Source of the DNA: Nereocystis luetkeana
Taxonomy: Eukaryota; Sar; Phaeophyceae; Laminariales; Laminariaceae
NCBI GenBank assembly: GCA_031213475.1
Contig: JARUPZ010000019.1
Span: forward strand, 4,629,896 to 4,693,895
Length of the DNA stretch: 64,000 bases
Reading direction: 5' to 3'
Shown: one piece after another, positions 7,768 to 51,680 of the stretch
How positions within the stretch are numbered: the stretch's first letter is position 1
Layout: every line of letters begins with the position of its first letter
Position numbers and translations under genes: made by a program
The notes under the pieces: model-generated
Seen by the model: only the letters and a program-made list of their open reading frames with translations
The model's database searches: none
Told to the model about the DNA's origin: nothing

Positions 7768-7960
7768 TAGTGGGATGCAGCTCACCCTTCGTGCGACTCG
7801 CCCAACACCACCTCACGTTCCGCTTCGCGCTTGGCGCAAGCAATCAATGTCTGCCTGGTCGGTGGAAACCCGACGTGCTCCGTCCCGGCATTGTAGGGAG
7901 GCGACAGTCTATGGTCATACGCCTGCGCCCACGCATTGTATCGAGTGCACCCCCCGTTCC
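7768..7960 (+). mobile_element. SINE-3, body and C-rich tail
   Basis: Runs GGGATGCAGCTCACCC...GCGCTTGGCGCAAGCAA...CCCGGCATTGTAGGGAGGCG...and ends ATCGAGTGCACCCCCC. It matches copies at 11250, 34210, 34457, 39975 and 51485. The tail is C-rich instead of A-rich. Confidence 0.75.
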
Positions 7961-11111: not shown

Positions 11112-11455
11112 CACTTCGGTGGCTCAGCCGGTCAGAAAATGCTGCGCCATAAAAGTGCAACTCCCTACCGCGGGTTGAGTCCCGTACGCAAGAAAGGACG
11201 CACGGGGTACCGAAGTCCGCCTCACCAACCAAGCGGGTTTCTTAGCAGGATGCAGCTCTCGCTCATCCTTCATGTGCGACTCGCCGACCTCCTCAGAAGC
11301 GAGTCGGGCCTGGTGCAAGCAAAAATCTAAGCGTGTTCGGTGAAAGACCAGACGTGGCGCGCCACGGCATAGCAGGGCTGCGATGGTCTACGGCCATACG
11401 ACTACAGCCATGTGTGGCAATGGATATCCCCCCCCCCTCCCCCCCCCGTTGCCCT
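11112..11455 (+). mobile_element. SINE-3, full-length type copy
   Basis: The head has an A box (GGTGGCTCAGCCGG, 11119-11132) and a B box (GGGTTGAGTCCC, about 11181-11192), the split promoter of tRNA-derived SINEs. The body follows from GCAGGATGCAGCTC through GCCTGGTGCAAGCAAA to CCATACGACTACAGCCATG. The element ends in C tracts (11428-11450) and has no A tail. It is transcribed, if at all, by RNA polymerase III and would need a LINE reverse transcriptase. Confidence 0.8.
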
Positions 11456-16599: not shown

Positions 16600-16710
16600 C
16601 ATCGTCATAAGTGTGTCTCTATCAGGAGTAGGAGCGGGTGCTCCGTCTCGAAAGGGACGAGTGAGCAATGGTTTAAATGGCGAACTGAGGCAAGCAACCC
16701 TCTGTTCTGC
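16600..16710 (+). mobile_element. LINE-2 3' fragment
   Basis: Matches the end of the LINE-2 ORF seen at 24690 and 34640 (GTGTGTCTCTATCAGGAGTA, GTGCTCCGTCTCGAAAGGGA, GAGGCAAGCAA). Frameshifted and truncated; only the last ~35 codons are represented. Confidence 0.65.
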
Positions 16711-24350: not shown

Positions 24351-24433
24351 CCGTCCCGTCTCGAAAGGTATGCGTGGTCAATGGTCAAATGACTAAGGCA
24401 CGCAACAAATGAGTACGCCCCCCCCCCCCCCCT
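24351..24433 (+). mobile_element. LINE-2 3' end with poly-C tail
   Basis: The last ~25 codons of the LINE-2 ORF (CCGTCTCGAAAGGTATGCGT..., TCAAATGACTAAGGCACGC) reach the stop ACAAATGA, followed by GTACG and a run of about 14 C. Upstream part missing. Confidence 0.75.
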
Positions 24434-24508
24434 CTCCCTCGCGCTCATCGCCGGTGGGTGATTCGAGTAGTATGGCCGCTCGTTCCGCGGCGCAGGACTG
24501 CTGTACAG

Positions 24509-24618
24509 TATTACGGGGGGCCATAGTTAACAGGACCCAATATTGTCAGTAAAAATGGTGAAACATATAGGTTTTTATGTGTACCATAGGTCCTGTTAAC
24601 TATGGTCCCCCGTAATAG
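24509..24618. mobile_element. MITE-A copy 12, well preserved
   Basis: TATTACGGGGGGCCATAG to CTATGGTCCCCCGTAATA with both TA flanks. The arms match over about 27 bp, including GTTAACAGGACC. Confidence 0.9.
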
Positions 24619-24672
24619 TAGTTTTTTGTGTTCCATTTTCCTCAGCGATGCATCCCCCCCCCCCCCGCCCCC

Positions 24673-24820
24673 GTAATATTGAAAAAACGTAATGAGCGCC
24701 CAGATGTCGGATGTGTCTCTACTATTAATAGGAGTAGGAACGGTGCTCCGTCTCGAAAGGGGTTCGCGGTCAGCGGTCAAGTGACTAAGGCAAGCAATGA
24801 TTGGGGAACTCCTCCCCCCA
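24673..24820 (+). pseudogene. LINE-2 3' fragment
   Basis: Open frame for about 45 residues (KKRNERPDVG..., RSRNGAPSRKGFAVSG, VTKASN). The same C-terminal sequence is found in the larger relic at 34630-36000. Flanked by C tracts on both sides. Confidence 0.75.
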
Positions 24821-24824
24821 CCCC

Positions 24825-24880
24825 CTATGGTCATACGACTACGGCCATGGATGACATCATGAAAACCACCCCCCCCCCCC
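24825..24880 (+). mobile_element. SINE-3 3' tail fragment
   Basis: CTATGGTCATACGACTACGG CCATG followed by a short divergent run and a C tract. Only the tail is present. Confidence 0.6.
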
Positions 24881-25280
24881 CGATCGCTCGGGGGTGTAGC
24901 GCTAGTTTTCCGTTTTCCGAATGCCCCCCCCCCCCCCCCCCCCCTCCAGCTAAGGCTGTGGCGGGGTAGCTTCGGCATCTGACGTTTTTATAGCGTCTTA
25001 GGCTTCCTTGCCCTTACCCGTCCTGGCGTTTCTTCGCGAATCTTCGTAGCCTCGCAGGGTAGAAGCGTGGGAGTCGGTTGAGGGAAGCCGCATCTATCAG
25101 GTGCCTTAGATTGATGTTCTATTTTAATGGTCCGTGGAACCAGTGTTTCCTCGAATCTTCCAAAATTCTGGTGTGAAACCGGTGTTTCCCCGAATCTTAA
25201 CACAATTCTGTTCATAGCGTTCGTTAGGGTGGGGCTACGTAGTGTTCTGGCATTCATTGCCTTGGAAAGCCTGTAGAGGC
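24881..25280. other. Stretch with unassigned 89-codon frame
   Basis: A 20-base C tract at about 24926-24945. Minus-strand frame 25257-24988 (89 codons) is clean and basic at its C-terminus but resembles nothing I know. It has no paralogue or splice context here, so I leave it uncalled. Confidence 0.4.
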
Positions 25281-25723
25281 TATTACGGGGGGACCATAGC
25301 CGGCGTCCCCGGTGGCTTGGTAGGTGATCCGCGTGCCTATCAAGATCAACTTCGTGGGTTCAAGTCCCACCGAGTGCATGCTCGTAAAAAGGGCTTTTTC
25401 TTGCATGAAATAAATTGATTAGCGGAAAGCGCGAGAGCGTGAGTTAGCTACATTCGATGAAAATCGACGAGCAGCGGGAATGCTGAACCGTATGCGCAAC
25501 AAAAAATAAAGGCACGTACCGGGGGGGAGAAGGGTAGACACCTGCGACCACGGCTTGTCCAGAAGGTCGTCGAGGGTAAAACCTCCTACGAGTTAGGCTG
25601 GAAAGTGGAAGTGATGATGAAAAAAAGAAAGTAAATAGGACCAAACATTGTCAGTAAAAATAGGGAAATATGTAGGCTTTTGTGTGTAGCCTAGGTCTTA
25701 TTTACTATGGTCCCCCGAAATAG
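25281..25723. mobile_element. MITE-A copy 13, split by SINE-2
   Basis: The left arm TATTACGGGGGGACCATAG ends at 25299 and the element continues as GTAAATAGGACC at 25631, ending CCCCCGAAATAG. Removing the 331-bp SINE restores a normal MITE-A. Confidence 0.9.
25300..25630 (+). mobile_element. SINE-2 copy inside MITE-A
   Basis: Complete tRNA-like head with A box (GGTGGCTTGGTAGGTG) and B box (GGGTTCAAGTCCC, about 25357-25369), body and short A-rich tail (GATGAAAAAAAGAAA). Confidence 0.9.
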
Positions 25724-26500
25724 AGGCCTAGGATTTGGGAACACGAGAAAGGGATAGCGTACTACTTGGAAGATCTACGAGTTTACTTGTACGAGTAGAG
25801 AATGAGGGATCAGGGCGGGGCGAGGCAAAGCGGAGCCCCTGATCCGCCCGAGTCTGAGATACAGCAGAGCTCTTCTATAAGGAGGCACAAGTGAGAGGCA
25901 AAAGGGGCAAAGCAGGGCCTATTTTTGATGGGCGAATCTGGAAGAGGATACGTGTGTGTCCCAGGGACCATTTTTACCAAAAACCCGGTAGAATACCTAC
26001 CGGTACACTATACATAAAAATACACACGATACATCGATAGCATACTCGCATATCTTAGGTAGTGCTCGGTTGATATTGGATTGAAATGCATTGCACGTAT
26101 ATACTTATTGTTTGGGAATGTTCGCCCGTCCGGGATGCAAGTGCAGCAGCGAAGGGGGACATTTTACGTATGTATGTATGTCTACACGGCGGTACTCAGA
26201 CCTGCAAAATACACAACTCAAAACCTCCTCCGCCGCTCCTGCTGCTGCGCATGAACTTTTTTTTCTCTTTACGAGCACGTACTGCCTGTAACAACCACTC
26301 TGCACTATCTCCACCTCACGAACATCACCAACACAGCAACACAGCCTTTCATCTATCTTATCAATGAATCGTCTACGTACCCGGTACGTTGTACGTATGA
26401 AATTATGTTGTGTGTTTACTTTTACTACTGTTTTCATGTGTGCGCTCGGAGAACGTCCAGCTGTAACCTCGATCACTAATAAATATATACAGGTACGTAC
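25724..26500. other. Intergenic stretch, nothing recognised
   Basis: No conserved gene or named repeat. Confidence 0.45.
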
Positions 26501-26511
26501 TGCTGTTGTGT

Positions 26512-26560
26512 GTGTGTTCTTCACATTAAACCGTTATTTCTACCCGTCGACATACCCGCA
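26512..26560 (+). repeat. Repeat C fragment
   Basis: TTCTTCACATTAAACCG then TTTCTACCCGTCGACAT, preceded by a (TG)n run as in the copy at 59347. Confidence 0.6.
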
Positions 26561-26790
26561 TATATTCCCGGTGTACTGCTGTGTTGTAGTTTCATTTGTC
26601 TCCTAGGGTTTGTGACTGCAGATCTTGCATTATACCGGGGACTGCTGCACCTTGCTTGGTATCTGCCTAGGCTGTACAGCAGTAGTATTAATAGTAGGAT
26701 AGCGGAATCGGCACGGAAGCTCTTGCATGCGCTGGATGGCGACCGGTAGAAAAAACAAATAAATAAATAATGAGCAGAATAACACACGCG

Positions 26791-26791
26791 C

Positions 26792-26829
<38 letters not shown>
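26791..26829. repeat. (CAG)n microsatellite
   Basis: Thirteen consecutive AGC/CAG units. In minus-strand translation it yields poly-Ala or poly-Cys; no gene context. Confidence 0.9.
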
Positions 26830-26830
<1 letters not shown>

Positions 26831-27154
26831 GGAAATCCTGACAACCAAGGGAAACAAATGGTTACTATTACTATTAATACTGCTGTTGTATTGCACAGCA
26901 GTAAAACCCTTTTATTTTGTCCTGCAGTGTCTGTTGTACATACCTGGTACACCCACAGCAGCAGCAGTAGTAGACCCTTATTCCAGGTGTTTTGTCCCCA
27001 CGACGAGAGTAAGTGCAGCCCTAAAAGGGCATTACTATTACTAGTAATAAGTAGTGGCCAGCCCCTTTCGAGAGGCCCCGCGGAAAACGAGCACACATGG
27101 CGGAAGACCTCGAAAAATTCTGCTCGCCGTTCTTGCCTAATATTGGCGTCAACT

Positions 27155-27268
27155 TTTACGGGGGACCATAGTAAACAAGACCAAATAAATATTGTTGGTA
27201 AAAACGGGGAAACATAATAGGTTTTCATGTGTATCGCAGGTCCTATTCACTATGGTCCCCCGTACTAG
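27155..27268. mobile_element. MITE-A copy 14
   Basis: TTTTACGGGGGACCATAG to CACTATGGTCCCCCGTAC. Confidence 0.88.
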
Positions 27269-27329
27269 GTTATCATAGATCATAGGGTACAGGTACCAAG
27301 CCCTGATATGGGACGTTGTTGGTATGTGA

Positions 27330-27412
27330 GGGACCTCCACTCCCGGAATTTGACTGCGGAACTTGAATTTGACTGGTTCGTCCCCGAAACGGGACTCCAG
27401 TCTAAAGCGGTT
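27330..27412. mobile_element. MITE-B, degraded half copy
   Basis: Retains the right arm (TTGACTGGTTCGTCCCCGA, AACGGGACTCCAGTC) and GGTTAA; the left arm is reduced to TTTGACTGCGG. Confidence 0.55.
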
Positions 27413-27544
27413 AAAGGGGCGCCCCTTCGAGCAGAAAACACTACAACGGCAGTCTTACGAATGAAAAATCATACCAGGTATCCGTTTTTTTTCAGTTGCA
27501 ATACGTACTATTCCTGGCATAACTTCGACCTCTCACAACTCCCC

Positions 27545-27873
27545 GACGAAAAACACTTTTTTTTTCTCTTTCAGTTTTAATGCTCACACCATCTCTCTCT
27601 CTCTCGGCAGTTTCAGAGAGTCTGCAGCAGTAGCTGTCAATAGATGCTTTAGGGTCATTCTTATTATAGGCGATATTTTGGTTTCAGGTGCCGGACAGTA
27701 GTTCCGACGCCTTGACGAAAAAAACTCTTTTTTCTCTTTCAGTTCTAATGCTCACACCATCTCTCTCTCTCGGCAGTTTTGGAGAGCCTGCAGCAGTAGC
27801 TGTCAATAGATGCTTTAGGGTCATTCGTATAGGCGATATTTTGGTTTCAGGTGCCGGACAGTAGTTCCGACAC
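27545..27873. repeat. Tandem duplication of ~165 bp
   Basis: Unit 1 is 27545-27713 and unit 2 is 27714-27873. Both run from GACGAAAAA through CTCTCGGCAGTTT and CAGTAGCTGTCAATAGATGC to GGACAGTAGTTCCGAC, with few differences. No coding capacity. Confidence 0.85.
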
Positions 27874-27902
27874 CCTTTTTCATCACGAAAGGTGCGTTGT
27901 CC

Positions 27903-28182
27903 AAAATTGTCTCACAAAATTTAATTATTTCGTACTGGAAATAGAGGGTAATTATTTATATTCCGTCTTCGGGCACACGAAATAACAACCCCCTGTTATA
28001 AGGATTACCGAGGGCTGGGTAATCGATTGATACGTTTCCCCTAAAATTGTCTCACAAAATTTAATTATTTCGTACTGGAAATAGAGGGTAATTATTTATT
28101 TTCCGTCTTCGGGCACACGAAATAACAACCCCCTGTTATAAGGATTACCGAGGGCTGGGTAATCGACTGATACGATTCCCCT
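27903..28182. repeat. Tandem duplication of 140 bp
   Basis: Units 27903-28042 and 28043-28182 start AAAATTGTCTCACAAAATTT and end in GGGCTGGGTAATCGA plus about 15 bases; they differ at very few bases. A third, partial unit (TAAGGATTACCGTGGGCTGG) is at about 28412-28445. Confidence 0.9.
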
Positions 28183-28195
28183 TCGTACTCGTATA

Positions 28196-28270
28196 CGAAG
28201 CTCAGCAGGTAGCACCTTCACATTTGACGTCGTTGAGGACACGGGTTCGAATCTCACTTCGAACGTTTCT
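28196..28270 (+). repeat. tRNA-like SINE head
   Basis: A-box-like AGCTCAGCAGGTAGCA and B box GGGTTCGAATCTC at about 28240-28252. The sequence TAGCTCAGCAGGCGGCACC recurs at 28460, each time after the 140-bp unit, so the two belong together. Stem pairing is too poor for a tRNA gene. Confidence 0.5.
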
Positions 28271-28621
28271 TTCGTGGAAACACTTGCGCGCGCGGTCCCT
28301 AAAGACGTACCTCCCTGGTTCCCCAGGTATTGAAACGAAGCGGGTATATCAGCGTACGGCCGTATACGGTACCGATGCCCCGAAGATCCCGCCGTTTAGA
28401 GGGGGGGTGCTATAAGGATTACCGTGGGCTGGGTAATCGATCGATATTTTACCCCTATAGCTCAGCAGGCGGCACCTTCACACACTTCTCATACCTCTGC
28501 AACCAATAGACGAATGTGAAAAATGGAGTTTCTCAGGCTGCTGATACAGTCTTGACTCAAATTTTCGACGACAACGCCAAGCACTATTTATTAGCAGGCT
28601 GACAAAACTTACCTTGGTCTC

Positions 28622-28731
28622 TATCACAGGGGACCATAGTTAATAGAACCTATGGTATACATTAAAACCTCTATGTTTAATCATTTTTACTAACAAAAAT
28701 TGTCCTATTTACTATGGTGCCCCGTAATAGT
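28622..28731. mobile_element. MITE-A copy 15
   Basis: Left end decayed (CACAGGGGACCATAGTTAAT); right end CTATGGTGCCCCGTAATAG. Confidence 0.82.
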
Positions 28732-29234
28732 TCGACAGTACGCAGCGTCCTACGCGGTCAAAGCAGAGGGAAAGCACCAAAACAGGAGCTCCGGAATGAT
28801 CGACATTTTGCTGCTGAGCAAATCTCATTTCGTGACGCAAACACAGCTGCAGTGTCTGCCCGCTCTGTGGCTGGTCGAAGCACCCCAACACCTCCTAGAT
28901 GCCCTAACGGACAAGCTATGCGTTCGTCGGGAGATGGTGCGAGCATTAGAACTGGAGCTACGCCGTTGTCGGCTAGTAGGAAGTCATGTCACGGCGTTAT
29001 TGTACCAGAAAGAGTGTTTCTTCTGTAAAAAAGACAAAAAAAATGTCGTTTTTAGTTCAGTTTTTCAAAAGACTCCATCCCGCACTCTTTCTTGGTGCTG
29101 GCCGAAGGGGGCCCTTCGAAGGGGGCTACCTACTGCTGTCACATGACCCACATCATTTTTCTATACCTATTACCGCGTATCACGCCCTGCAGTATTCAGC
29201 CTTCACCGCGTCACTGAAGTGTTATCTAGGACGA
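28732..29234. other. Stretch with unassigned open frames
   Basis: Overlapping plus-strand frames of about 100 and 150 codons run from inside MITE-A copy 15. They match no family I recognise and have no supporting splice context. Confidence 0.4.
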
Positions 29235-29425
29235 AATATGGAAATCGAGGAATGTTTTTATTCTATGACTTTTGGTGTGGTCGACCAGGGTCGGGATGTG
29301 GGGTTATAGAGTGAACAGGGTTGGTGTCTTCGAGTAGTGTTTTGGGGCATTTTTCGATAAATCCTTTTCTCATGACGCTGGAACCACACGCGGGCCACAC
29401 CATATCCCCTCCGATTTCCACACTT
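29235..29425 (+). repeat. Repeat I, copy 2
   Basis: TATGGAAATCGAGGAATG, TTTTGGGGCATTTTTCGA and ACCACACGCGGG align in order with 9375-9512. Confidence 0.55.
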
Positions 29426-30046
29426 TATTTTTTATTTTTATCTTAGATGTCATCATAACTCATTTATACAAACACACGCCCTCCGACGAATTTCCGAGTT
29501 GATTTCCTCGCAATGCAGTAGGGAGAACGCAAACGCCCGACAGATACACAAGTGCAACGTCTATGCAATGAAATCTCGCGACGACATCCTTCCGAATCCA
29601 TCGTTAATTATCGTTGTGTTTACCCCCCCCCCCCCCCGCCCGATGGTTTGGAGACACCCGGCTCGGAAATTTATTCTCTGGGGTGTGTTATCTTGATGAA
29701 TGTATGGCATACCTCCAGCATGTACGTAACCCTTTTAGGACCGCACACCCGTTTTGCGGCCTATTGGGTACATAGTCGTATACCGTATTACACACAATAT
29801 ACGCAGGATAACACACCCCCTCTACTCGTAGGACGATTTTTCAAAGCTGGGTTTCCCGACAACGGGGATGGCGTGCTGAATACGACGAGCCATGCGTCTA
29901 CTGTATGCAACCTTCGGGACGAGATCTTTCCAGGGCCACCATTTTCGTTGTGTTTGTGTTTTTGGACCCCAGTCCCGTTTTGGGGACAAACTACCTATAA
30001 TTTGAGTGTTTTGTCCCTACTTGTGGGAGTGCGGTGCTAAGGGGGT
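29426..30046. repeat. Repeat J with MITE-B fragments
   Basis: J-like blocks flank 29726-29760 (a MITE-B left arm, CCCTTTTAGGACCGCA) and 29963-30046 (a diverged MITE-B ending GGGGGTTAA). A C tract lies at about 29625-29639. Confidence 0.5.
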
Positions 30047-31012
30047 TAAGGCATGTGTTGGAGGAAACCGGGTCCGAAATTCGTGCCCAGGGGGTGTGTT
30101 ATCTTTATTATAGTATACGGTATTGCTTGGAATTAGACTGCAGACACAAGTTTCTGTACAGCAGTGCAGTACTAAAACGGGTTAAAAACGGTATACAACG
30201 GTACTTGGTACATATACTCTTCTCCTGCTGCCCTTTCTATAACCTTGCCTGGCCTTCCCTCTTTCTCACTGCCTGCCCCTCTGGACGGAAAAATAGGAAC
30301 CGTTGGCGTGCGAACACGAAAACTCGACGACCCTTACATTGCCGCCCAGGCATGGTATCAATCGATCAACCAATCAAACCGTCGAACGTTTAATCACTGT
30401 TATTCGTAATAGAACAATATCAAGTATTATACAATAGTAAAATGTCGATCTCACATCCCAAATAGTACCCATGGTTCGTGTGGTCATGTCCCGCATGTAG
30501 ACCAGCTTGATGATCGGGCAGGCCTCGCATACATCCGATTGGGCCGGAGAGTCCGTCCGCTGCGATCCTGCGATCCGAGAGTCCTGGCGTCAGCTGCCCA
30601 CCGTACGAGCGACGAATAAATGGGAAATCGGTTGGGCGGGGCAGAGGGGAGGGAGGTGGGAAGGAAGGGGGGCGGGAGGAACGATTGTAGACGGCGTAAT
30701 AAGTTGCCCGTATACCCGGTATACATGTAGGGTATACCTAGACCGTGGCACATACAATCAGCACAAACACTGCATAATAATATCGTGCAAGTATCACATA
30801 CGACAGCAGTCGGTAGTATGTATAAAACTCCCCATGACCTATGCAAGTCTACAATGATACCGGTATACATACCAGGTATAATACGAACGTTTCATATATC
30901 GATAACAAGTAGTTACAAGACGGTACCGCAGTATGGGCCCGCCGGCAAGACATACTTGCTCGTTCGTGGCTCTGAGGGAGGCCGAGACCGTATTGTGCCG
31001 CCAACCTCACCT
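30047..31012. other. Intergenic stretch, nothing recognised
   Basis: J-like sequence to about 30110 (CCAGGGGGTGTGTTATC). The remainder has no gene or named repeat. Confidence 0.45.
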
Positions 31013-31113
31013 CAACCCTTTTTAGGCCTGCAGTCCCATTTCGGGGGCAAACCGCCTGATTTTGTAAGTAAGCTTGTCCCCAAAACGGGACTACTGCAAT
31101 CCTGAACAAAAAG
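31013..31113. mobile_element. MITE-B copy 14
   Basis: Left TCAACCCTTTTTAGGCCTGC and right AACGGGACTACTGCAATCC, both slightly expanded. It abuts a C-tailed LINE-2 end. Confidence 0.7.
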
Positions 31114-31440
31114 GGGGGGCGGCGGGCGTACTCATTTGGTGCTTGCCTTCAGTCGTTTGACCATTGACCATGCATCCCTTTCGAGACGGAGCACCGTTCC
31201 TACTCCCTAAAAGAGACACCACCAACAATTGGGCGCTCATTACGTTGTTTCCATCTATTACATACCAGGTAGGAACTTTTTGCTGATCTTATCCCCTTCC
31301 TGTTTGGCCGCCTGTGGCCACCATCTATCTCCTATTAATAGGATAGCGATCTTTTTCTCGCTGCTATCTAGCGTGTCAAACTCCTCCATGTCACATCAGT
31401 CTATAACAAAAAAGGGGGAGGGGGGATTGAAGATCCTCAA
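31114..31440 (-). pseudogene. LINE-2 3' relic with C-rich tail
   Basis: On the minus strand the frame of the LINE-2 C-terminus (RNGAPSRKGCMVNGQ) is followed by ATGAGTACGCC plus C-rich sequence at 31113-31130. Upstream it continues to about 31430 parallel to 34790-34885 (AGTTTGACACGCTAGATAGC, GGCGGCC). Confidence 0.75.
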
Positions 31441-31751
31441 GCCCGTTCTCCTTCGGGGACCCCCGAGATAGGGAGAAAAAAAACAACGAATACCACTCTG
31501 TCCCGAAACATGAGGGCCAGTTTGTAAAATACTATTCAATCAAAACGGTCCTTCTATACTCAGGGGTATAGTGGTAAAAACTTTAGCGCCGTCAAGCGTC
31601 TCTCTCTCTATATATACGAGCAGCGTGAGAGCCCCAAAAAAGTATGGGTAGGATCGTGCCTGTCCGCGCCCGTGCCCCAACGACTCCTTCCTTCGAGCGC
31701 TACAGTTACCCTCACCCCCCCAGTCACACAGTGGATGTTTTTGCTGTTATA

Positions 31752-31872
31752 ATAACCCTTTATAGGGAAACAACTGCAGTCCCGCTATGGGGACAAAAAC
31801 AAAAAAAAAACTTGAATTTTGAGTGGTTTCGTACCCAGAACGGGACTTACTGCAGTCCTAAAAGGGGTTAAT
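31752..31872. mobile_element. MITE-B copy 15
   Basis: Ends AATAACCCTTTATAGGG and CCTAAAAGGGGTTAA; the loop is enlarged by an A tract. Confidence 0.7.
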
Positions 31873-31957
31873 CGCCACAATTTTCTTATCGTCAATTTCT
31901 CCGCCTCCGAAGACTCGAAGAGGGTCGTATTATAAATGTGTTTCAAAACTCGTACGG

Positions 31958-32057
31958 CAAAACTGCAGAGTCCTGTTTAAGGGGACAAACTACTCAGAAT
32001 TTGAGTGGTATGGTCCCCAAAACAGGACTGGCTGCAGTCTGCCCTACAAGGGTTAAG
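31958..32057. mobile_element. MITE-B copy 16 (GGCAAAACTGCAG subtype)
   Basis: Left arm GGCAAAACTGCAGAGTCC, right arm GACTGGCTGCAGTCTGCCC, then AGGGTTAA. The copies at 437 and 36214 share the altered left terminus. Confidence 0.7.
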
Positions 32058-32892
32058 CATCTACTGCTGTAAGTATAGGTTATAGCCTGTTCTACACCCG
32101 GCACCACACCACTTCGGACGCCAATGTAAGGACCGTTGGGTGCTGATATTTATACACCACCAGCCCTTATATTTCCGTCCAAGAAAGTTACCTGGTACCT
32201 TGGTAGGATTTACCAAAAGCATAGTAGGATGTGGTGTTTTCAACTCGCTCGCCGCCGACCATGTGAGAAAGTATCAGATTTCTCTGCATACAAGACGTAT
32301 AGATTATATATGCGTAAGACTCATACTGCTGTGAAAGTATGTGCATTCTTCAGGACCCAAAACTTCTTGGCAGCTGGTAAATAAAAGGAGAAAGCCTCAT
32401 CGTTTTTGTTTTTTGGTTTCCGCTGAATTACTTTCTTACCCGTCGGCCCAGGTTCCTACTTGGTGTCTACGTACACGATACACAGCTCTGGGCGGAAAGT
32501 GCGAGGACCTTTCAAGTTATTAATACGATTCCTACAACGGCCCTACCTGGTGCATCGCGGTTCAGACCGGTGACATGCGATATGTGGTTCTATCGCCGAG
32601 GTCAGGTGACGGTGGTGGAGCTCTCCACAAATGTCGTCGTGTACTTTGTGCCGGTTCTATCACATACGGCATCTTATACCACCGCGTAACACGGAAGAAA
32701 ACGCCCCCCGCCGTGACGAACTCCCGAGCCGAACAAGGGGGGGGGGGGGGGGGGGCGCATACACGCACACCGAAAAGTGGTGGCGTTGAAAATAACCCGT
32801 TCGTCGAGATTTTTTCCCCATGGACGCGTCAATCGCTCTGCGCGTCGTGCACTCTCCTCGGGAAAAAAATCAGCAAGGAAATTTGTCCGAGG
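32058..32892. other. Intergenic stretch, poly-G and repeat J
   Basis: A G tract of about 18 at 32736-32755. J-like sequence at about 32795-32892 (CCGTTCGTCGAGATTTTTTC, CCGAGGGGTTGCGTTATC) leads into the satellite. No gene. Confidence 0.45.
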
Positions 32893-33071
32893 GGTTGCGT
32901 TATCTCTTATCACACGTGTGATGAGGGTGTGTTATCTTATCACCCTAGTGTGATAAGGGTGTGTTATCTTAAATCGCCCAAGTGTGATACGGGTGTGTGT
33001 TATCTTATCACACGTGAGATGAGCTAGATGTGCTATCTCATCACAAGTGAGGTAGACGCGGGTGTGCTATC

Positions 33072-33168
33072 ATAACTCTTTTGGTACTGTAGTCCCGTTT
33101 TGGGGACACACTACTTGGAAATTGATGGTTTGTCCCCAAAAACGGGCTGCAGTCCCAAAAGGGTTAGT
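33072..33168. mobile_element. MITE-B copy 17, inside satellite
   Basis: Arms CTTTTGGTACTGTAGTCCCG and AACGGGCTGCAGTCCCAAAA, ends ATAA and GTTAG. Satellite units continue on each side. Confidence 0.8.
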
Positions 33169-33294
33169 CGCACGTGTGATAAGGATGAGTTATCTGTATC
33201 ACCCTAGTGTGATAAGGGTGTGTTATCTTAAGCACACGTGTGATAAGGGTGTGTTATCTTATCACACGTGAGGTAGATACGGGCGTGTTATCTT

Positions 33295-33388
33295 AAACAT
33301 TTTAGCACTGTAGTCCCGTTTTGGGGACAAACTACTTACAAATTGACTGGTTTGTCCCCAACAAGGGACTGCAGTCCAAAAAGGGTTG
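33295..33388. mobile_element. MITE-B copy 18, inside satellite
   Basis: Arms TTTTAGCACTGTAGTCCCG and AAGGGACTGCAGTCC. It shares the CTGTAG variant with copy 17, so one may derive from the other. Confidence 0.8.
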
Positions 33389-33655
33389 ATCACACGTGTG
33401 ATAAGGGTGTGTCGTCTTATCACCCGTGTGATAAGGGTGTGATATCTTAATCACACTTGCGATAAGGGTGTATTATCTTATCGACCTGTTAATAGTGTGA
33501 TACGGGTGTGTTATCTTATCACACGTGTGATAAGGGTGTGTTATCTTGTAACACGTGTGATAAGGGTGTGTTATCTTAAATCACCCTAGTGTGATACGGG
33601 TGTGTTTTATCTTATCACACGTGTGATGAGCTAGATGTGCTATCTCATCACACAC

Positions 33656-34199
33656 GTGTAGAAGCCCTTCGCGGAGGGTCGAAGCCTGAGGATCGACATC
33701 AGAATCAAGAGTGCCTGCCGTCGCCATCAGGAGAGCAGGGCTTCATCGGGCCGTGCCGAACCCGGAGTACTTGAAGGAATCCTTCGCAGGCCCGTAAGCG
33801 CGGCGAGTACATCCATCTATCTGCGAGGCGAAGGCGCTGACCACAACGCATCTACGATCAGTTGCCTCTTAGCTCCGCGGCGCGTAAGCAACCCAACGCT
33901 AAGCTCATTATTCCGCGAAGAGGGGTCCTTCGACGAGCGGAGCCACAAAAAACTTGCCAGTTTTGCCGTGGAAAAAAAATGGGCGTCTGGGAAGAGAAGG
34001 CACGCAGGTCGATAGTACCTTCATCGATGAGCTGGCGACAAGTATAGCGGGGATAAAGGGTGGATGGTTTCTTGCCAGGTAGGGGATTCGCAAGGAGCGC
34101 CTCTTGTAGATAGTACCGATTATCACAAAGGTAGCCATCTTGAGGAGGGTCTGGGTTCAAACTCCATTTGCAGGGTCGCCTGAAGGCTAGGACGAGCAT
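33656..34199. other. GC-richer stretch, no gene assigned
   Basis: A plus-strand frame of about 115 codons without a start (about 33662-34014) is open but matches no family. Distinct composition from neighbours; could be decayed mobile-element coding sequence. Confidence 0.4.
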
Positions 34200-34378
34200 G
34201 GGCGGCGCGGGGGGGGGTGTACTCGATAGGAGAGATGTACTCGATCTCATGCACGGTCGTAGTCGTATGACCATAGACCCTCGCATCTCTACAATGCCGG
34301 GACGGAGCATGTCGGGTTTTCACCGACCAGGCAGACATTGCTTGCACCAAGCGCGAAGCGCCGTGAGGCAGGGGGGGT
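34200..34378 (-). mobile_element. SINE-3 copy
   Basis: From a G tract (C tail) at 34208-34218, through GTACTCGATAGGAGAGATG, CATAGACCCTCGCATC and CAATGCCGGGACGGAGC to GCTTGCACCAAGCGCGAAGC. 5' head missing. Confidence 0.8.
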
Positions 34379-34449
34379 GGCATATTTATGTCGTACGTGG
34401 CCATGCATGATAATGAGTAACCCCCCCCATGCCCCCCCCCCCACCCCTC

Positions 34450-34606
34450 CTCGTAGGATGCAGCGACTCGCCGGACATCTCACGACGCTTCACGCTTGGT
34501 GCAAGCAATGTCTGCCTGGTCGGTGAAAACCCGATGTGCTCCGTCCCGGTATTGTAGGGATGCGAGGGTTCATAGCCATACGACTACGGCCGTACGTATG
34601 ACCAAG
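34450..34606 (+). mobile_element. SINE-3 copy
   Basis: GTAGGATGCAGCGACTCG to CGACTACGGCCGTACGTATG. It meets the LINE-2 relic tail-to-tail. Confidence 0.75.
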
Positions 34607-36000
34607 GAGGGGGGGGGGGGGGGGGGGGCGTACTCATTTGTTGCTTGCCTTAAGTCATTTGACCATTGACCACGCATCCCTTTCGAGACGGAGCACCGTT
34701 TCTACTCCACCTCCAACATTTGAGCGATCACTGTTTTTTTTCCATGTATTTCATAGAAAAAAAGTGCTAACCTCATCTCCTTCTTGTTCTGCCGCCTGTG
34801 GCCGCCATCTGGCTTCTCGGAGAGCGATCATTTTTCTCGCTACTATCTAGTGTACCAAACTCCTCCAGATCACATTAGTCTATTTTTCTCATCTTCTCGC
34901 CTAGCACAACCCGTTCCTCTTTGTACATTTCACGTTCTCCCACTCTGTGAGTTCTACTCTCGATTGCTACGGCACAAGGGCATATATGTGCATCTACTTC
35001 CTCCTCCTCCCGGCTACTGGCATACCTTTTTCTTCTTTTTGGCGGATCGAGGTCCCCTACACAGAATCGCAGTTTCAGCGTTTTCGCGTAGTCCATTGGG
35101 CCGTTAAAATAGGTTTTTATTCCTACATCTTCCCTTTACCTGCCCTGAGGTGTTTCTCCAATTTCGACTTTTTTCTTAGCGCTAGCTCTTCCCTTCTTTC
35201 TACATTTTCTTCTACTTCTGTCGTGTGCCTCCCAAACTTCTGTGCGGACATAATGTCTTCTTGGTTTCCCCTATAGCCTGTTTTTTCGACTACGCTATCC
35301 CACCCTATTCCAGCTCGCCCTTTTGTTACTTTCTCCAAGACAGCCCTGTAAGCTACGGCTGACAACTGGCACGTTCCTTACTTTCGATATCGCCATTTCA
35401 ACTTTCTAACGTCCCTTTGTTTGTCTAAAGTGGGTACATTCCCGAGCGTCCTAGTACTTTTCTAGCTGCTGCCATCTGTTACCGTTTCCAGCTGGTTTAC
35501 GAACTTCGCGTTCCCCTCCCACAGGTTTCTTGCATATTATAGGTACAGTCACACTCATCATAGTACATATCTTAATCCTAGTGTCAAGGTGCGAGTCCCT
35601 GTCAGGATCGAATCCATCTTGCCTATGATACGCGTGTTTTACCCGTTTGTATTACTTTTTGTATGGGTGCACCCCCAACAGCAGAATTTTTACATTCTAC
35701 GCCAAGGGTAGGTATACTGGTCTGCGATCGGCAATTCATCCTCTCCCCACTTCCATTCGAAAGTTACCGGGTTCGCCTTACCTTAGCTACGCAAACCTAT
35801 AGCGCACTTTTCTTACGTTTGCCATCGCTCTCCGCTTCCTACAGTGTACTCTACTACGGGGGACCATAGTTAATAGGACCAAATATTGTTAGTAAAAATG
35901 GTTAAATGTATAGGTTGTTATGTGTACCATAGGTCTTATTAACTATGGTCCGCCGTAAGAGTGCCTTCCCTACTTGTTTCTGCAGGCCTCCAGGCGTTTC
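34607..36000 (-). pseudogene. LINE-2 relic, C-terminal half
   Basis: Minus-strand translation, reading through stops and frameshifts, gives the region downstream of a non-LTR reverse transcriptase catalytic site: ETPGGLQKQVGKAL, then (after a MITE) FEWKWGEDELPIADQYTY, NLWEGNAKFVNQLE, KQRDVRKLKWRYRK, EKVTKGRAGIGWDSVVEK, EEVDAHICPCAVAIESR and RNGAPSRKGC. The last ends at ATGAGTACGCC plus a C tract (34611-34630). It differs from the intact LINE at 60254. 5' truncated near 36000. Confidence 0.75.
35851..35961. mobile_element. MITE-A copy 16, inside LINE-2 relic
   Basis: TACGGGGGACCATAGTTAAT to TTAACTATGGTCCGCCGTAA. Cutting it out together with one TA rejoins the LINE frame. Confidence 0.9.
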
Positions 36001-36213
36001 TGATATTCCCACGTAATGGGGGTGGGGGGGGGGTAACAGAATCACACTCTGGCTTCGGGATGGAGCCTGGGTGCGGCGTAGGGGGTAAAGCCACGGGATA
36101 GATGAATGTGACAAAAAAGGACACAGAAAGGGCAACAGGAACCAAGCGTAAAAACGTTTTCCAGGGGGGAGGCGGGCGAAAAAACGTCCACACAAAAATT
36201 ATGTAAATTTACT
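36001..36213. other. Spacer, G-rich
   Basis: G tract at about 36018-36032; no gene. Confidence 0.4.
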
Positions 36214-39790: not shown

Positions 39791-39959
39791 TCTTGTGCGG
39801 GTTATGTGCCGTTTTGTACGGCAGCGAAGGGGGGGCGACAGGTCTGTCGCGGAATTACGCCAAAACGCTGTTAGAGCGCAGCCAATTCCTTCAGCGAATA
39901 AAAGGAAATCCAGGCAGCTACGGTTCTCGAGGCGTGGAAGAGGTGGCCAGCATAGCTCG

Positions 39960-40145
39960 GGGGGGGGGGGGGGGGGGGGTACTCGATATCATGCATGGCC
40001 GTAGTCGTATGACCATACACCCTCGCATCCCTACAATGCAGGGACGGAGCACGTCTTGTTTTCACCGACCAGGCAGACATCGCTTGCACCGAGCGCGAAG
40101 CGCCATGAGGTGTTCGGCGAGTCGCGTGCAGGGTGAGCTGCATCC
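39960..40145 (-). mobile_element. SINE-3 copy
   Basis: G tract of about 20 (C tail, 39960-39979), GTACTCGATATCATGCATGG, then the body to GGTGAGCTGCATCCTA. Head missing. Confidence 0.8.
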
Positions 40146-40164
40146 TACTAAGAACCGCCCGTGA

Positions 40165-40668
40165 GGCGCACCTTTTTTTGTTTTTTTTTGCTCATCCCAT
40201 TTATTATCTTCGCACATCTTCTTCTCTCTCTCCTTCCAACTCGTAACTCAGATCCGGGGTCACATAGCAGGCTCTTCTACCCCCTTTCCGCTACGGTACG
40301 TGCCTTCATTTTTATCGCGAGAAGATTTCAGCTTTTTCTTCCCTCGTCGACTCGCATCGAATTGTGCCTGCATATGGATGACAGCTTCAATAAGTTAATA
40401 TATATTCCGGTGTGGCCACTTCCAGAGACAATAATGGGGGTACTATGCGACTGCTTCTTCGATGCCTTACGATAAGCACTGCTTGATGCAATCCTTCTCC
40501 TTGTGCGGAGGAAAGGTTCTTCACTCCGCACGAATGATCTAACTCGATCGCCAGCTGTGACCGACCGCCACAGAAACAATCAAACAAACGGTACCTTGGT
40601 TGTCTAGCTCAAGCAGTGAGCGGCATGTTTTACAGTGTCGTTACCAACCGACGCCAACCCAACCTAAA
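40165..40668 (-). mobile_element. SINE-1 body fused to repeat E
   Basis: T-rich tail complement (40170-40188) and SINE-1 body to about 40368, then continuous with repeat E (40372-40668) in place of the tRNA head. The junction GCATATGCAGGCACAATTC parallels GCGTGGGTAGGCACAATTC of normal SINE-1, so the two parts look fused at a homologous site. Confidence 0.75.
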
Positions 40669-41459
40669 AAATACATAGGGGGGGAGGGGGGGGGGGGGAG
40701 GGAGTCGGTTGAGCCGTAGATTTTCTAGTATGTTACATGCGGCGCGAGAACCCCGACGGTTCAAGCTCGAGGGCGGCGACAGCGCCGCAGGTTGCCACAG
40801 GAAAGCAGTGTCGGTTGTGGCCACAGCGTTGGCGGAACGTTCGTGACGACGGTCGTCGCGACAGTGGCGGTGGCGGCGGTGGCGGCGGTGGTGGTGGTAG
40901 CGGCGGCGCCGGGGCATCGGTAGTGAAAGTGGAAAGGGTGGCGGCTCTGCCGAAGCCAGAACTACTGCTCGTACGAATCCTGGTCGAGCTACTGTAGCAA
41001 AGCCTGTTGTTCTACGATGGAAGCTGATATGAGGGGCAAGTTGCGCGCGGTGATTTACCAACGGAGCTCTGGGCGGCGGGCGTAGTGGAGGGCGTAATAT
41101 ACGGGGAGGTGTGAAAATGCTTGACGGAGACGTGACAATAATTATGTGGCCGAAGTTTAGCAGCCATCCCGCCGTTATCAAAACACTCTCCCCCTCTTGC
41201 ATGATAGCGGCGGTAAAAATAATTGCAAGCGTGGGGACTCTCTACCGATCTCAGGGTGCATGAGAAACACGCATAGAATCATCCGAAAAATCAATGGGAG
41301 CGCCTGGCCGGGGAAAGCAGCGCTTCTCGCGCTTTCGAGAAAAGCGCAGACCATGGAGTCCTAGTCCTGCCAACGACGACAAATGCAAGGGGTCTCCCCG
41401 ACACGTAAGAGCGCATACCCATGCCATGCGCTATGGATGGTTGTTATTGCCTCTTTCGG
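40669..41459. other. GC-rich stretch, no gene assigned
   Basis: G tract at about 40679-40700 and GGC/GGT trinucleotides at 40865-40912. A frame from 40737 has a basic N-terminus but degenerates into poly-Gly. Not called. Confidence 0.4.
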
Positions 41460-47965: not shown

Positions 47966-50951
47966 AGAGTGAACCAGTTGCGAAATTCGAAGTCGCAGCC
48001 TAAGCTGAGGCTTCGACTATCGGTCGAGGGCGGGGGTTGTTCCGGCTTTCAGTATAGGTTTTCCTTGGAAGACGCAGTGGCCGGGGACGAGATTGAGGGG
48101 AGACGGGACGAAAGCGAGGACGACCCCGAGGAAAGCGACGACGAGGATGACGATGGCGTTGACCAGTGAGTTTTGGTCTCGCCTTGGGTTGCGAAGGCGG
48201 CAGTCGGTGCCGAACTCAATGCTGCGAGTATTTTTCAGTAAGAAACATAAAAGTGAAAACTCAGCTGTAAAGACCTATGCCGATGGAAACGCGAAGTTCA
48301 AAAGTTTTGTTTCAAATATATCGCGTTCACAAAACAGCCGAAAATTTTCTCGTACCGCCGCTGTGGGGAAAAAAAAGGAAAAAATGTTTGAGATATATAT
48401 ATTTTTTCCCCCAACGGCTGCAGGCGGCGCGATTTGTGTTTTTCTGGTCGCAAATTGTCAACACGGTGACCGAAACCAGCTCGTGCGACGATCGACTCTC
48501 GATCTCGACATAGACTCAGCCCACGGCCAACCCACTCGGTATCTGGCAAGCCCAACAAAAATAGATGACGGCCTCGAAGATATCAGGTGGATCCATGGTC
48601 TAGGGGGCGAGAGCTTGCCGGCGGCGTCCTACGGTATCCTCCCAAACCTGAAAACAAGTCTATTTTTTTCCTTTCGAGACCGATGGAGAAGTTTTGTCTT
48701 CTGTTTTGTGCAAACCAGCGGCAAAATGTTTTTTTATCACACGCCTGGTCAGCTCCCGCCACATGACACCGGCCATGGTGTGAAGACGGTGACCCTAGGG
48801 TGGGTCGGAGCCCCTAACGAGCGCACTCCGTTCAGAATTCATGACGCAATCGTTGGTTTTGTTGATCGATGTCTGTCGAGGACTCGGAATCTCGCCGCTT
48901 CGAACCAAAGATCGGTCTGAGTTTTTTTTGGGCTTTTCCAAAAGTTAGGAACTTTTTTTCATTTTACGTGGCCCATAGGAAGCGTGTTCTGATTTTTTTT
49001 GGCGGGTATCTTTGAAATTCAAACTTTTTCTTGCAACTTCGCTGTACCATTGGCATAGGTCTAAGATTGAAAATTTGCTCAAAACTCATGTTTGCAAGCT
49101 TGGTGTGATAATTCCATCGCACTTTCTACGGGGTGTGTGGATGTTGGAGTGGTGCACATATTCTTGGCAGTTTTTCTGTATGCAACGAATTCGCTGCCTA
49201 TGCTAGCAATGGCTACTGCTGTAATTTTTTCGCCATGCTCCCTGAACGTTACAGAGCTCTTCGGGTTTGCGCTACGGCCTTGGCACCCCTGTGACAAATC
49301 CGTACGGATATACGTAGGCTGTCGGAATCGGGGGCAAACCCTCGTAGGAAATTTATGTTGGCCGCGGCAACACAAGTGCGAGTGCTGAGGGGGGGGCATG
49401 CTGCAGTAGTAGCTCTCTGCGTGACTCACGCTGTTGCTGTTGTGTGTCAACTCACGCCGCCGCTGTTGTTGGTTCCCCCCCCCACTCGCCTCTCCTAGAG
49501 AGCTATTGCTCTGCGTAGACACTTTCGCGCGGAGCAGTGGTAGCGGCATCTGTAGTCGGCATCGGCACTTGATGCCGTCGTGTTTTGCCCTACCCGCGAG
49601 TTTTCCCTTTGACTCCTTTGTCGGCCGCCCGGCGGCGGCGTGCTTAACCGCGGGATTCTGGGGTGGCATTCCCTAAAAGTTCCGCACTAATTCTTGGTAG
49701 TTTGTCCCCAGAAATCGTGAAATCGTGGCACTGGTTCTAAAGGAAGTTAGCTTTTTCGAGATTGTATCCACTCAGCCCTGGCCCGATTGACGCCCTCCTG
49801 CCGCTCTCTTTTCTGCCGACGCTTCTCGAATGCAAACACCATCTCAGCGAATTCGAACGCGACGGGGCTGTCTTGGTTGTGGACGAGACATCGCTTGGTT
49901 TCGTCAAAGGCGCAACGGTGAGGGGCTGGGTCGTCCTCGTTGGGGAGGAAGGGAGGGGGGGAGGGCTCGTTGGGTGGGTGGGTGGGTGGGTGGGGGGGGC
50001 GGGGGGGGACGAGGGCAGTTTGCGCTGTTAGGTTGACCGAACAAACTCGACTTTACCAGTATACTAGACGCATGCTACGGTAGGGATGCACCTTGTCAAT
50101 TTTTCTGATAATTTTCTGACGCTCCTCGCTTGAGAACCACTATCTACGATATCGCACCCGAAAGCTGTTTTTTTTTTTTGAAGAAAAAAAGGCATACTTG
50201 AAACCGATGAGCAAATCAATCCCGTGGCCTTGGTTCTGTATGAACGAAATCGATCTGTAAAAAAACACAACGGATGTTGGGGTAGTCCCTCATTTTAGAA
50301 GCCCCCCCCCCCTCAGGGATGCGAGGGTGTATGGTCATACGACTACGGCCATGCATGAGATCGAGTACATCTCTCCTATCGAGTATACCCCCCCCCCCAG
50401 TCAGATAATGATATCGAGTATACCCCTCCCCCCCCTCCCCAATCAGTCAGAAATATTGCCTCATGAGGCAAAAAAAATCTACCTGCTACCTGTTACGAAA
50501 CCTCTATCGTACAAGGCGCCACAAACGGCATTTTTTTTCGTTTTTGCCGCAATTGAGCAATGTGTAATGCAAACAGGTTTACGTCCAGTACTATAACGGA
50601 GAACCATAGTAATTATGACCAAATATTGTGGGTCAACATAGCGAAATACTTCGTATTTAGGTTTTCGTCTGTACCGTAGGCCCTATTCAATATGGTCCCC
50701 CGTAAATAGGGCTGTCCCCGAAACGTGCACGCAGTTCCAGAGGGTTTGGTTGACCTATCGCTCTTGCTCTTTTATATTTCGATTTTTGACGAATGTATTC
50801 CTTCCCCCCCGCCTTTCGGAAGGTGGATTTTGAGGAAGATATGATGCGTAGCGCGTTCGCCGTGGTGAACAACCCGGTGTCGGAGAGCGCCTGCGGATGC
50901 GGCAGCTCGTTCGCTCTCAAGAACTTCGAGAAGAACCCCGCGCTTGACTAG
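47966..50951 (+). CDS. ISCA2: ISCA2-type iron-sulfur cluster assembly protein (three 3' exons; 5' exon missing)
   Basis: A-type carrier of the HesB/IscA family; in mitochondria ISCA2 works with ISCA1 and IBA57 in 4Fe-4S maturation (family knowledge). Exons read 47966-48165, 49848-49917 and 50823-50951, with introns GT-AG and phases 2 and 0 joining correctly. Together they give 132 residues and a stop. Seen directly: LRLSVEGGGCSGFQYRFSLE with the first conserved Cys, VVDETSLGFVKGATVDF across the second junction, and the C-terminal CGCGSSF with the Cys-Gly-Cys pair. The VEGGGCSGFQY and FVKGA wording fits ISCA2 better than ISCA1. Odd: after FSLED there is a highly acidic loop of about 20 residues (ESEDDPEESDDEDDD) at the end of the first exon found. 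The start, with any mitochondrial presequence, is not located. Intron 2 carries a MITE-A and a SINE-3 fragment. Confidence 0.9.
49672..49748. mobile_element. MITE-B relic in ISCA2 intron 1
   Basis: CCTAAAAGTTCCGCA, TTGGTAGTTTGTCCCCAGA and GGTTCTAAAGGAAGTTA keep the order of a MITE-B with much of the arms lost. Confidence 0.5.
50325..50400 (+). mobile_element. SINE-3 tail fragment in ISCA2 intron 2
   Basis: GTATGGTCATACGACTACGG, GAGATCGAGTACATCTCTCC and ATCGAGTATACCCCCCCC. The truncated part begins right after a C tract. Confidence 0.75.
50592..50707. mobile_element. MITE-A copy 18 in ISCA2 intron 2
   Basis: TATAACGGAGAACCATAGTA to CAATATGGTCCCCCGTAAATA; the most diverged full copy. A MITE-B right-arm remnant (GGCTGTCCCCGAAACG) follows it. 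Confidence 0.8.
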
Positions 50952-51469
50952 TGCTATAGCCCTTCGCGACGCAAGGGGCTACTTTCAAGCCGAGTCTGGA
51001 TCTAACGCGATGCAAGGGGCCATCTTCCAAGCCAAGCCTGGACAAAACAAATCGTCATCGCCACGAGTTCGTGGAGCCGTTTTGGTTTTGATCGCTGCTG
51101 TCGGAGGGGAAAATGTATACCGGTATGTGGAAAAGCGGTTTACGAGACGACGACAGACCGCTGTGTCGCGTGTGGGTGGTCGTCGGGGGCATGAGGTCCA
51201 TGCGGCTCGAGTGTCGGAAAGGGTCGGGTGTGTCGACAAGGGCTCTTTTTCGATGTGTCGCTTGACGCTTTCTTGACCGACGGACGAGCGCACCGGACGG
51301 GCGAAGCTGTGCTTCCTGCTGTGGGGGATGAGGGGCGCAATGAACGCGGGCTTTAGACCGTCTCTGGTGGTGTTATACGATCTTGTGCTACGGTTTGACG
51401 CCTGTGCTGCAATTTAAGAGCGTTGAGAACGCTCGTATGCACTACGGCACACACACCGGAGGGGGGGGG
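50952..51469. other. ISCA2 downstream region
   Basis: Follows the ISCA2 stop; plausible 3' untranslated region. Two related blocks (GCGACGCAAGGGGCTACTTTC at 50968 and GCGATGCAAGGGGCCATCTTC at 51008) form a short tandem repeat. Confidence 0.45.
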
Positions 51470-51680
51470 TGGGGGCGGGGGCGGGGGTATACTCGATAGG
51501 AGAGACGTACTCGATTTCATGCATGGCCGTAGTCGTATGACCATAGACCCTCGCATCCCTACAATGCCGGGACGGAGCATGTCGGGTTTTCACCGGCCAG
51601 GCAGACATTGCTTGCACCAAGCGCGAAGCGCCGTGTGGTGTCTGGCGAGTCGCATGAAGGGTGAGCTGCATCCTAGGGGG
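51470..51680 (-). mobile_element. SINE-3 copy
   Basis: G-rich tract (51461-51488), GTATACTCGATAGGAGAGAC, GTACTCGATTTCATGCATGG, then the body to GGTGAGCTGCATCCTA. Confidence 0.8.

What the first reader, a model, noticed from the sequence alone, without database searches (positions are those of the whole stretch)
24351..34640. Retroposon pair with poly-C 3' tails (LINE-2 and SINE-3)
Three LINE-2 ends (24433, 31113 and 34611) stop four to five bases after the ORF stop as GAGTACG followed by a C tract. SINE-3 copies (7960, 34210, 39975, 50395, 51480) end GAGTACA or GAGTATA plus a C tract and have no A tail. SINEs usually copy the 3' end of the LINE that moves them. The shared GAGTACR-C(n) end suggests a reverse transcriptase that starts on a C-tailed RNA. 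C or G tracts of 10-20 recur across the window and many mark such ends.
Basis: partly seen in the sequence, partly recalled or inferred. Interest (0 to 1): 0.85.

Follow-up and report, generated by a model that had tools for sequence, protein, structure and literature searches.

The report
Retroposon pair inserting into C-runs
An algal jumping element and its short parasite share the same 3' end and often land in runs of the base C, so the C tracts beside them look more like duplicated landing sites than added tails.

Summary
LINE-2 and SINE-3 share about 60 bp of 3' end finishing in GAGTAC; GAGTACR plus six Cs occurs 14,233 times in the 465 Mb genome, against 132 for the reversed control. The tail reading fits less well. 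C runs flank the 5' side too, on the same strand: 30 of 38 LINE, 34 of 56 and 13 of 20 SINE borders, against 3.8% background. In 10 of 114 copies with a script-found target duplication, the C run is inside it and equally long on both sides (10.8 vs 10.9, r = 0.92). So the Cs seem mostly target-derived: insertion by target-primed reverse transcription into C runs, with the G-strand end as primer. Chains form when copies land beside older ones (28 of 114). Against this, 24 of 41 truncated SINEs lack a C run at the 5' border. A C-tailed RNA is not excluded. SINE heads also carry a 5' C block (453 after CCCC, 53 after a non-C). A similar LINE/non-autonomous pair is known in Ectocarpus; my searches listed no report of C-run targeting.

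The parts
24356..24432 (+). LINE-2, 5'-truncated 62-bp copy plus C15; a C-rich tract lies just 5' (24331-24355)
24654..24812 (+). C13 tract, then a 5'-truncated LINE-2 copy (24674-24812) whose 3' end departs from GAGTAC
24825..24881 (+). SINE-3 3' fragment directly after the preceding LINE-2 copy, then C13
31113..31404 (-). LINE-2, 5'-truncated copy ending GAGTACG plus interrupted C tract
34209..34368 (-). SINE-3, 5'-truncated, ends GAGTACA plus C9; CACCCCCCC within 2 nt 5' of it
34432..34608 (+). C11 tract, then a SINE-3 copy (34463-34608) whose 3' end abuts the G side of the LINE-2 tract; no C run of its own
34609..36033 (-). LINE-2, longest copy in the window (about 1.4 kb, 5'-truncated), C20 at its 3' border and C10 eleven bases from its 5' border; a MITE-like repeat sits in it at about 35853-35960
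7405..7962 (+). SINE-3, nearly full-length, ends GAGTGCA plus C6; no C run at its 5' border (counter-example)
11261..11447 (+). SINE-3 copy, diverged 3' end followed by C10TC9
16614..16698 (+). LINE-2 3' fragment without GAGTAC or C tract (counter-example)
39959..40698 (-). SINE-3, nearly full-length, C13 near its 5' border and GAGTA plus C21 at its 3' border; interrupted at about 40171-40369 by another repeat
50302..50435 (+). SINE-3 5'-truncated 73-bp copy (50315-50387) between C11 and C11; a second GAGTATA-plus-C end follows at 50410-50435
51461..51675 (-). SINE-3, 5'-truncated, CCCCCC at its 5' border, GAGTATA plus interrupted C tract at its 3' border

Best explanation
LINE-2 is a LINE with a reverse transcriptase and probably an APE-type endonuclease; SINE-3 is its non-autonomous partner with a LINE-derived 3' end. 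Both insert by target-primed reverse transcription, mainly into pre-existing runs of C. The G strand is cut at or near the start of the C run (top-strand view), and its G-run 3' end primes copying of an RNA that ends GAGTACG (LINE) or GAGTACA (SINE). The C run therefore remains as the 3' border. The other strand is cut within the run or some 5-16 nt past it, which duplicates the C run at the 5' border. Insertions thus leave C runs beside them, and later copies insert there in the same orientation, giving head-to-tail chains. Shown: the shared 3' end, C runs at both borders on one strand in many copies, target duplications containing the C run with equal length on both sides, nesting, domains in pieces. 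Inferred: order of cutting, priming, mobilisation of SINE-3 by LINE-2, the state of the RNA 3' end, and loss or deletion of the 5' C run in copies without one.
For: Target duplications found by script in 11 of 114 copies against a mean of 0.37 (maximum 2) in 200 shuffled pairings. L099 was dropped because its match is the head of the next SINE, which leaves 10. Their 5' and 3' C runs average 10.8 and 10.9, difference 0.1 (SD 2.5), Pearson 0.92, permutation p 0.0006. Examples: L039 C16GCCCGATA on both sides, inside the C run of an older LINE-2; L024; L120. C run of 5 or more in the 27 bases at the 5' border in 30/38 LINE, 34/56 and 13/20 SINE copies against 3.8% of window 25-mers; G run in 0/38, 1/56 and 0/20. 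An older family end lies in the 60 bp 5' of 28 of 114 copies against 2.25% background (the pattern is ad hoc and a few matches look false). One SINE and one LINE end align from TGCTCCGT to GAGTAC. RVT_1 E 5e-11 and 1e-9, Exo_endo_phos E 0.001 on single pieces. Genome counts.
Against: 8/38, 22/56 and 7/20 copies have no C run of 5 or more at the 5' border, and 7, 22 and 6 of these have one at the 3' border. Split by length, a 5' C run is found in 15/34 and 2/7 truncated SINEs but 19/22 and 11/13 near full-length ones, and in full-length ones it is at least partly a block carried by the element; so the SINE figures are weaker evidence for the target than the LINE figure. The 24 truncated SINEs without it have no marked excess of C runs further 5' (4 of 24 in the next 50 bases, background 7.7%). 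Only 10 of 114 copies give a clean duplication. A looser search without the C requirement finds 17 of 114 against a mean of 5.8 in shuffles; by eye L115 has 3 Cs at 5' and 10 at 3', L126 8 and 7+6, and L016, outside the 114, 6 and 13, while L124 has 14 and 7. The 56 SINEs were chosen for six Cs at 3', which biases the 3' run upwards. The endonuclease match is below Pfam's cut-off. No empty site was seen. Places were taken in coordinate order on contigs C1 and C2, not at random. My odds were lowered from 0.8 to 0.7.
Confidence: 0.7

Rival explanations
1. One reading: the RNA carries a 3' poly-C tail, reverse transcription starts on it, and the genomic C tract is a copy of that tail.
For: C run directly after GAGTAC in nearly all sampled copies, variable length. 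24 of 41 truncated SINEs and 8 of 38 LINEs have no C run at the 5' border, and of the 37 copies of any kind without one, 35 have it at the 3' border. L106, L108, L115, L126 and L016 have more Cs at 3' than at 5'.
Against: Where a duplication is recognised the C run is part of it and equally long on both sides on average. The 10 script-found duplications all start with at least 4 Cs at the 5' side, although the search required at least 3. L106, L108, L115 and L126 come from the sample selected for at least 6 Cs at 3'.
Confidence: 0.18
2. Mixed model, a refinement that overlaps with the best explanation: the target is a C run and the RNA also ends in a few Cs (from the parent locus) that pair with the G-run primer, so tail and target jointly set the position, with little or no net gain of Cs.
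For: Compatible with the equal lengths, the strict strand orientation and the copies with Cs only at 3'. Analogous in principle to the pairing of the L1 poly-A tail with a nicked-DNA primer (start of the abstract of PMC11014359, seen in the listing).
Against: No data on the RNA; a fixed 3' end without Cs explains the duplication data equally well.
Confidence: 0.35
3. C runs at both ends are encoded by the element, or C runs promote recombination that joins unrelated pieces, rather than being insertion targets.
For: Intact SINE heads begin right after a C block: 453 with CCCC, 53 with a non-C. In L077, L105 and L106 that block lies inside the target duplication, so it travels with full-length copies.
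Against: 5'-truncated copies with duplications join directly to the duplication, with no extra C block (L024, L039, L048, L068, L108, L120). Duplications contain non-C flank sequence that recombination between C runs would not produce.
Confidence: 0.08

Closest known systems
RTE-X LINEs and the ~600-bp non-autonomous RTEX-N1_Ec32 of Ectocarpus (PMC12477816; passages and one table seen)
   Same: Brown-algal LINE with a very abundant ~600-bp non-autonomous partner that shares its 3' end and has a 5' part of unknown origin. A LINE-2 C-terminal piece matches proteins named Ectocarpus sp. CCAP 1310/34, the two best-scoring at 66% and 60%, others among the listed hits between 41% and 69%.
   Different: In the main text 'C-tract' and 'homopolymer' occur 0 times and 'poly' as a whole word 0 times; supplements were not readable. 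Clade membership of LINE-2 was not tested by a tree. The species of the window is not known to me.
Microsatellite-specific non-LTR retrotransposons, e.g. (TG)n-specific Togen (PMC4640811, passages seen)
   Same: A LINE whose copies are flanked by the simple repeat it inserts into.
   Different: Target here is a run of a single base, C. Togen is related to the RLE-type NeSL clade per the paper, whereas LINE-2 has an APE-type endonuclease piece. A SINE partner shares the target.
SaTar elements of guayule and rice (PMC5907723, outline and abstract seen)
   Same: Linear arrays of elements associated with simple-repeat targets, without nesting inside element bodies.
   Different: SaTars are non-autonomous MULE DNA transposons, not retroposons.
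L1/Alu priming at T-rich sites (recalled)
   Same: Homopolymer at the cut site contributes to both the border and the duplication.
   Different: In L1 the A tail is copied from RNA and adds length; here no net gain of Cs is seen in the 10 duplications measured.

Membership tests
LINE (non-LTR retrotransposon) | Reverse transcriptase domain | tested here: met
   PF00078 on two L006 pieces, E 5.1e-11 and 1.3e-9
LINE (non-LTR retrotransposon) | APE-type endonuclease | tested here: inconclusive
   PF03372 on one L007 piece, E 0.001, 19.3 bits, below the cut-off of 24.5
LINE (non-LTR retrotransposon) | 5' truncation and variable-length target duplications | tested here: met
   duplications recognised in a minority of copies
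RTE-X clade | Placement in the reverse-transcriptase tree | not tested
   no named reference sequences at hand; only the parallel with PMC12477816 and the Ectocarpus hits
SINE | 3' end derived from a partner LINE | tested here: met
SINE | Pol III-type head from tRNA, 5S or 7SL | tested here: not met
   no tRNA in the window; no Rfam family at gathering score in the window, none credible on the L011 copy. A diverged promoter could be missed, so 'SINE' is used loosely
Simple-repeat-targeted LINE | Target repeat on both sides, same strand, part of the duplication | tested here: met
   not in every copy: 24 of 41 truncated SINEs lack the 5' run
Simple-repeat-targeted LINE | Endonuclease cuts the repeat | not testable with these tools
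   needs a biochemical assay

The most novel reading that the evidence does not exclude
A retroposon pair that uses C homopolymers as self-multiplying landing pads. Insertions duplicate the run that received them, and full-length SINEs carry a further C block at their 5' end, so the family seeds its own future targets and builds one-strand chains. Priming is by a G-run DNA end at a fixed RNA end, without a copied tail.
Probability: 0.4. Interest if true: 0.62.

Novelty: new variant of a known kind. Interest (0 to 1): 0.5.

Why it matters
It would be a LINE/SINE pair aimed at a single-base homopolymer, with thousands of copies in one genome. That offers a natural data set for how the target, the primer and the RNA end fit together in target-primed reverse transcription. 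It also accounts for a good part of the long C runs in this window (14 of 32), and is a warning that a homopolymer behind a retroposon need not be its tail.

Tried and rejected
A-tail alternative: rejected for this pair (one search counts only 329 non-C ends; A, T and G all appear among the 100 listed). Known RNA head for SINE-3: nothing credible. Relatives in viral and prokaryote collections: none useful (L001 is a 21-residue match and was not used). Conserved 3' stem-loop: alifold on 49 LINE ends gave no structure; 20 SINE ends gave one (-15.2), not tested for covariation. A first duplication score was too permissive (means 4.9 observed and 4.3 shuffled) and was replaced. The version found 13 of 95 (shuffles: mean 0.8, maximum 4), of which L028, L034, L099 and L122 look doubtful. 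Papers: the answered searches listed no report of C-run targeting or poly-C-tailed retroposons; several lists were capped at 10-15 of hundreds, and the library lacks most subscription journals. Rows left out of the 5' border counts: 9 of 50 LINE loci whose 5' end lay beyond the fetched stretch, L034 (nested repeat), L062 and L063 (same sequence as L061), and 4 of 60 SINE loci without a match to the reference (L076, L089, L093, L116). L002-L017 were not part of the counts.
Full report
WHAT WAS CHECKED. The window is eukaryotic and lies at G000:C19:4629896-4693895 in a 465,085,209-base genome of 1987 contigs. Its other LINE ORF (60254-63994, -) and a piece of LINE-2 both match proteins named as from Ectocarpus, among mostly unnamed records, so a brown alga is likely. 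The species is not known to me.

THE OBSERVATION. The three LINE-2 ends and five SINE-3 ends are present, with small spelling differences. Comparison with longer copies shows 13 copies in the window, 5 LINE-2 and 8 SINE-3. Of 32 runs of 9 or more C or G in the window, 14 lie within 30 bp of a border of these copies in the copy's orientation; 18 do not. One LINE-2 piece (16614-16698) and one SINE-3 piece (34463-34608) have no C run of their own at the 3' end.

GENOME-WIDE. GAGTACR plus six Cs occurs 7121 + 7112 times, and the reversed letters 68 + 64 times. A LINE-2 stretch upstream of the tract occurs 979 times. The first 30 places were cut out, and all 30 continue with a GAGTAC-like hexamer (24 exact) and a C-rich run (read by eye). 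A SINE-3 stretch occurs 5661 times. The SINE end is followed by CCCC 5526 times and by a base other than C 329 times; ends followed by one to three Cs were not counted.

LINE-SINE RELATION. One LINE-2 and one SINE-3 3' end align from TGCTCCGT to GAGTAC (score 55; 500 shuffles, mean 23, maximum 42; a second SINE form scores 47). In a long LINE-2 copy the last frame stops at the TGA inside AAATGAGTACG, so the 3' untranslated part is about 5 nt and the SINE tail corresponds to the end of the coding region. LINE-2 pieces match RVT_1 and, weakly, Exo_endo_phos. LINE-2 5' ends cluster: 14 of the 38 measured copies start 53-62 bp before the end (list), where the SINE homology also starts. This could mark a frequent stop of the reverse transcriptase at which the SINE was born by a template switch; that is inference.

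WHERE THE Cs COME FROM. They are often at both. A C run of 5 or more lies in the 27 bases at the 5' border in 30 of 38 LINE copies, 34 of 56 SINE copies chosen for six Cs at 3', and 13 of 20 SINE copies chosen without reference to the tract; it occurs in 3.8% of window 25-mers. G runs occur in 0, 1 and 0 copies, so the orientation is fixed. The LINE copies are the cleaner evidence, being all 5'-truncated. Among SINEs the 5' run is present in 19/22 and 11/13 near full-length copies but in only 15/34 and 2/7 truncated ones. The 24 truncated SINEs without it have no marked excess of C runs further upstream. Target deletion, decay or a C-tailed RNA could each explain them.

TARGET DUPLICATIONS. 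A script looking for a C run plus at least 6 following bases on both sides found 11 of 114, against a mean of 0.37 and a maximum of 2 in 200 shuffled pairings. L099 was dropped because its match is the head of the next SINE. In the remaining 10 the C-run lengths (5'/3') are 9/7, 16/16, 24/26, 17/12, 6/7, 8/7, 5/9, 4/6, 10/10 and 9/9. Mean difference is 0.1 (SD 2.5), Pearson 0.92, Spearman 0.87, permutation p 0.0006. An earlier version of the script found 13 of 95, of which L028, L034, L099 and L122 are doubtful. A looser search without the C requirement found 17 of 114 against a mean of 5.8 by shuffling. Further cases read by eye go both ways: L124 14/7 and L142 4/5, but L115 3/10, L126 8/7+6 (interrupted) and L016, outside the 114, 6/13. 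The data fit a target C run that is duplicated, with no net addition on average. They do not exclude Cs on the RNA.

CHAINS. Of 114 copies, 28 have an older family end in the 60 bp on their 5' side, against 2.25% of random window 60-mers (the pattern is ad hoc and a few of the 28 are doubtful). L039 sits in the C run of an older LINE-2, with C16GCCCGATA on both sides.

5' C BLOCK OF FULL-LENGTH SINEs. All 19 heads matching spellings picked by eye are preceded by at least 4 Cs in 6 bases. Near full-length copies with other heads can lack it: L073, L144 and the window copy at 7405. Genome-wide CCCC precedes one common head spelling 453 times and a non-C base 53 times (one to three Cs not counted). 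In L077, L105 and L106 the block lies between the duplication and the head. In six truncated copies with a duplication there is no such block. So the block seems to belong to the moved RNA, perhaps because transcription starts inside the flanking C run; unexplained.

WHAT IS KNOWN. Ectocarpus has RTE-X LINEs with a ~600-bp non-autonomous partner in more than 6000 copies that shares their 3' end; its main text has no hit for 'C-tract' or 'homopolymer' (PMC12477816, passages; supplements not readable here). LINEs specific for simple repeats are known (PMC4640811 passages). Eight answered paper searches listed nothing on C-run-targeted or C-tailed retroposons; several lists were capped.

VERDICT. 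A new variant of a known kind: a simple-repeat-targeted LINE with a partner SINE, here for a single-base run. Confidence 0.7 (0.8 before the split) that the 3' C tract is mainly target sequence.

Noticed in passing
G000:C1:10522958-10524061: Four SINE-3 3' ends spaced 359-363 bp apart on one strand, looking like a tandem array of the SINE (one search list).
   Followed up: no
window 20594-20790, 22952-23101, 40173-40369, 46343-46492: Another dispersed repeat family; the copies near 20650 and 46343 run into long A runs, and one copy interrupts the SINE-3 copy at 39979-40666, so A-ending and C-bordered families coexist.
   Followed up: partly
window 60254-63994 (-): Long LINE ORF (1246 aa, RVT_1 and Exo_endo_phos) of a different family; best hit 78% identical over its length.
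   Followed up: partly
window 35853-35960 and over a dozen other places: Abundant MITE-like inverted repeat (GGGGGACCATAGT...ACTATGGTCCCCCG); one copy sits inside LINE-2.
   Followed up: no
LINE-2 copies L019, L027-L029, L033, L037, L039, L042-L045, L059, L060, L066: Very short LINE-2 copies of 53-62 bp make up 14 of 38 measured 5' ends; the start coincides with the start of SINE homology.
   Followed up: partly
window 27903-28182: Tandem duplication of a 140-bp unit, 98% identical.
   Followed up: no
window 6567, 11611, 14107, 24924, 29623, 32737: C or G runs of 15-21 with no recognisable LINE-2 or SINE-3 border; origin unexplained, possibly empty targets or decayed copies.
   Followed up: no
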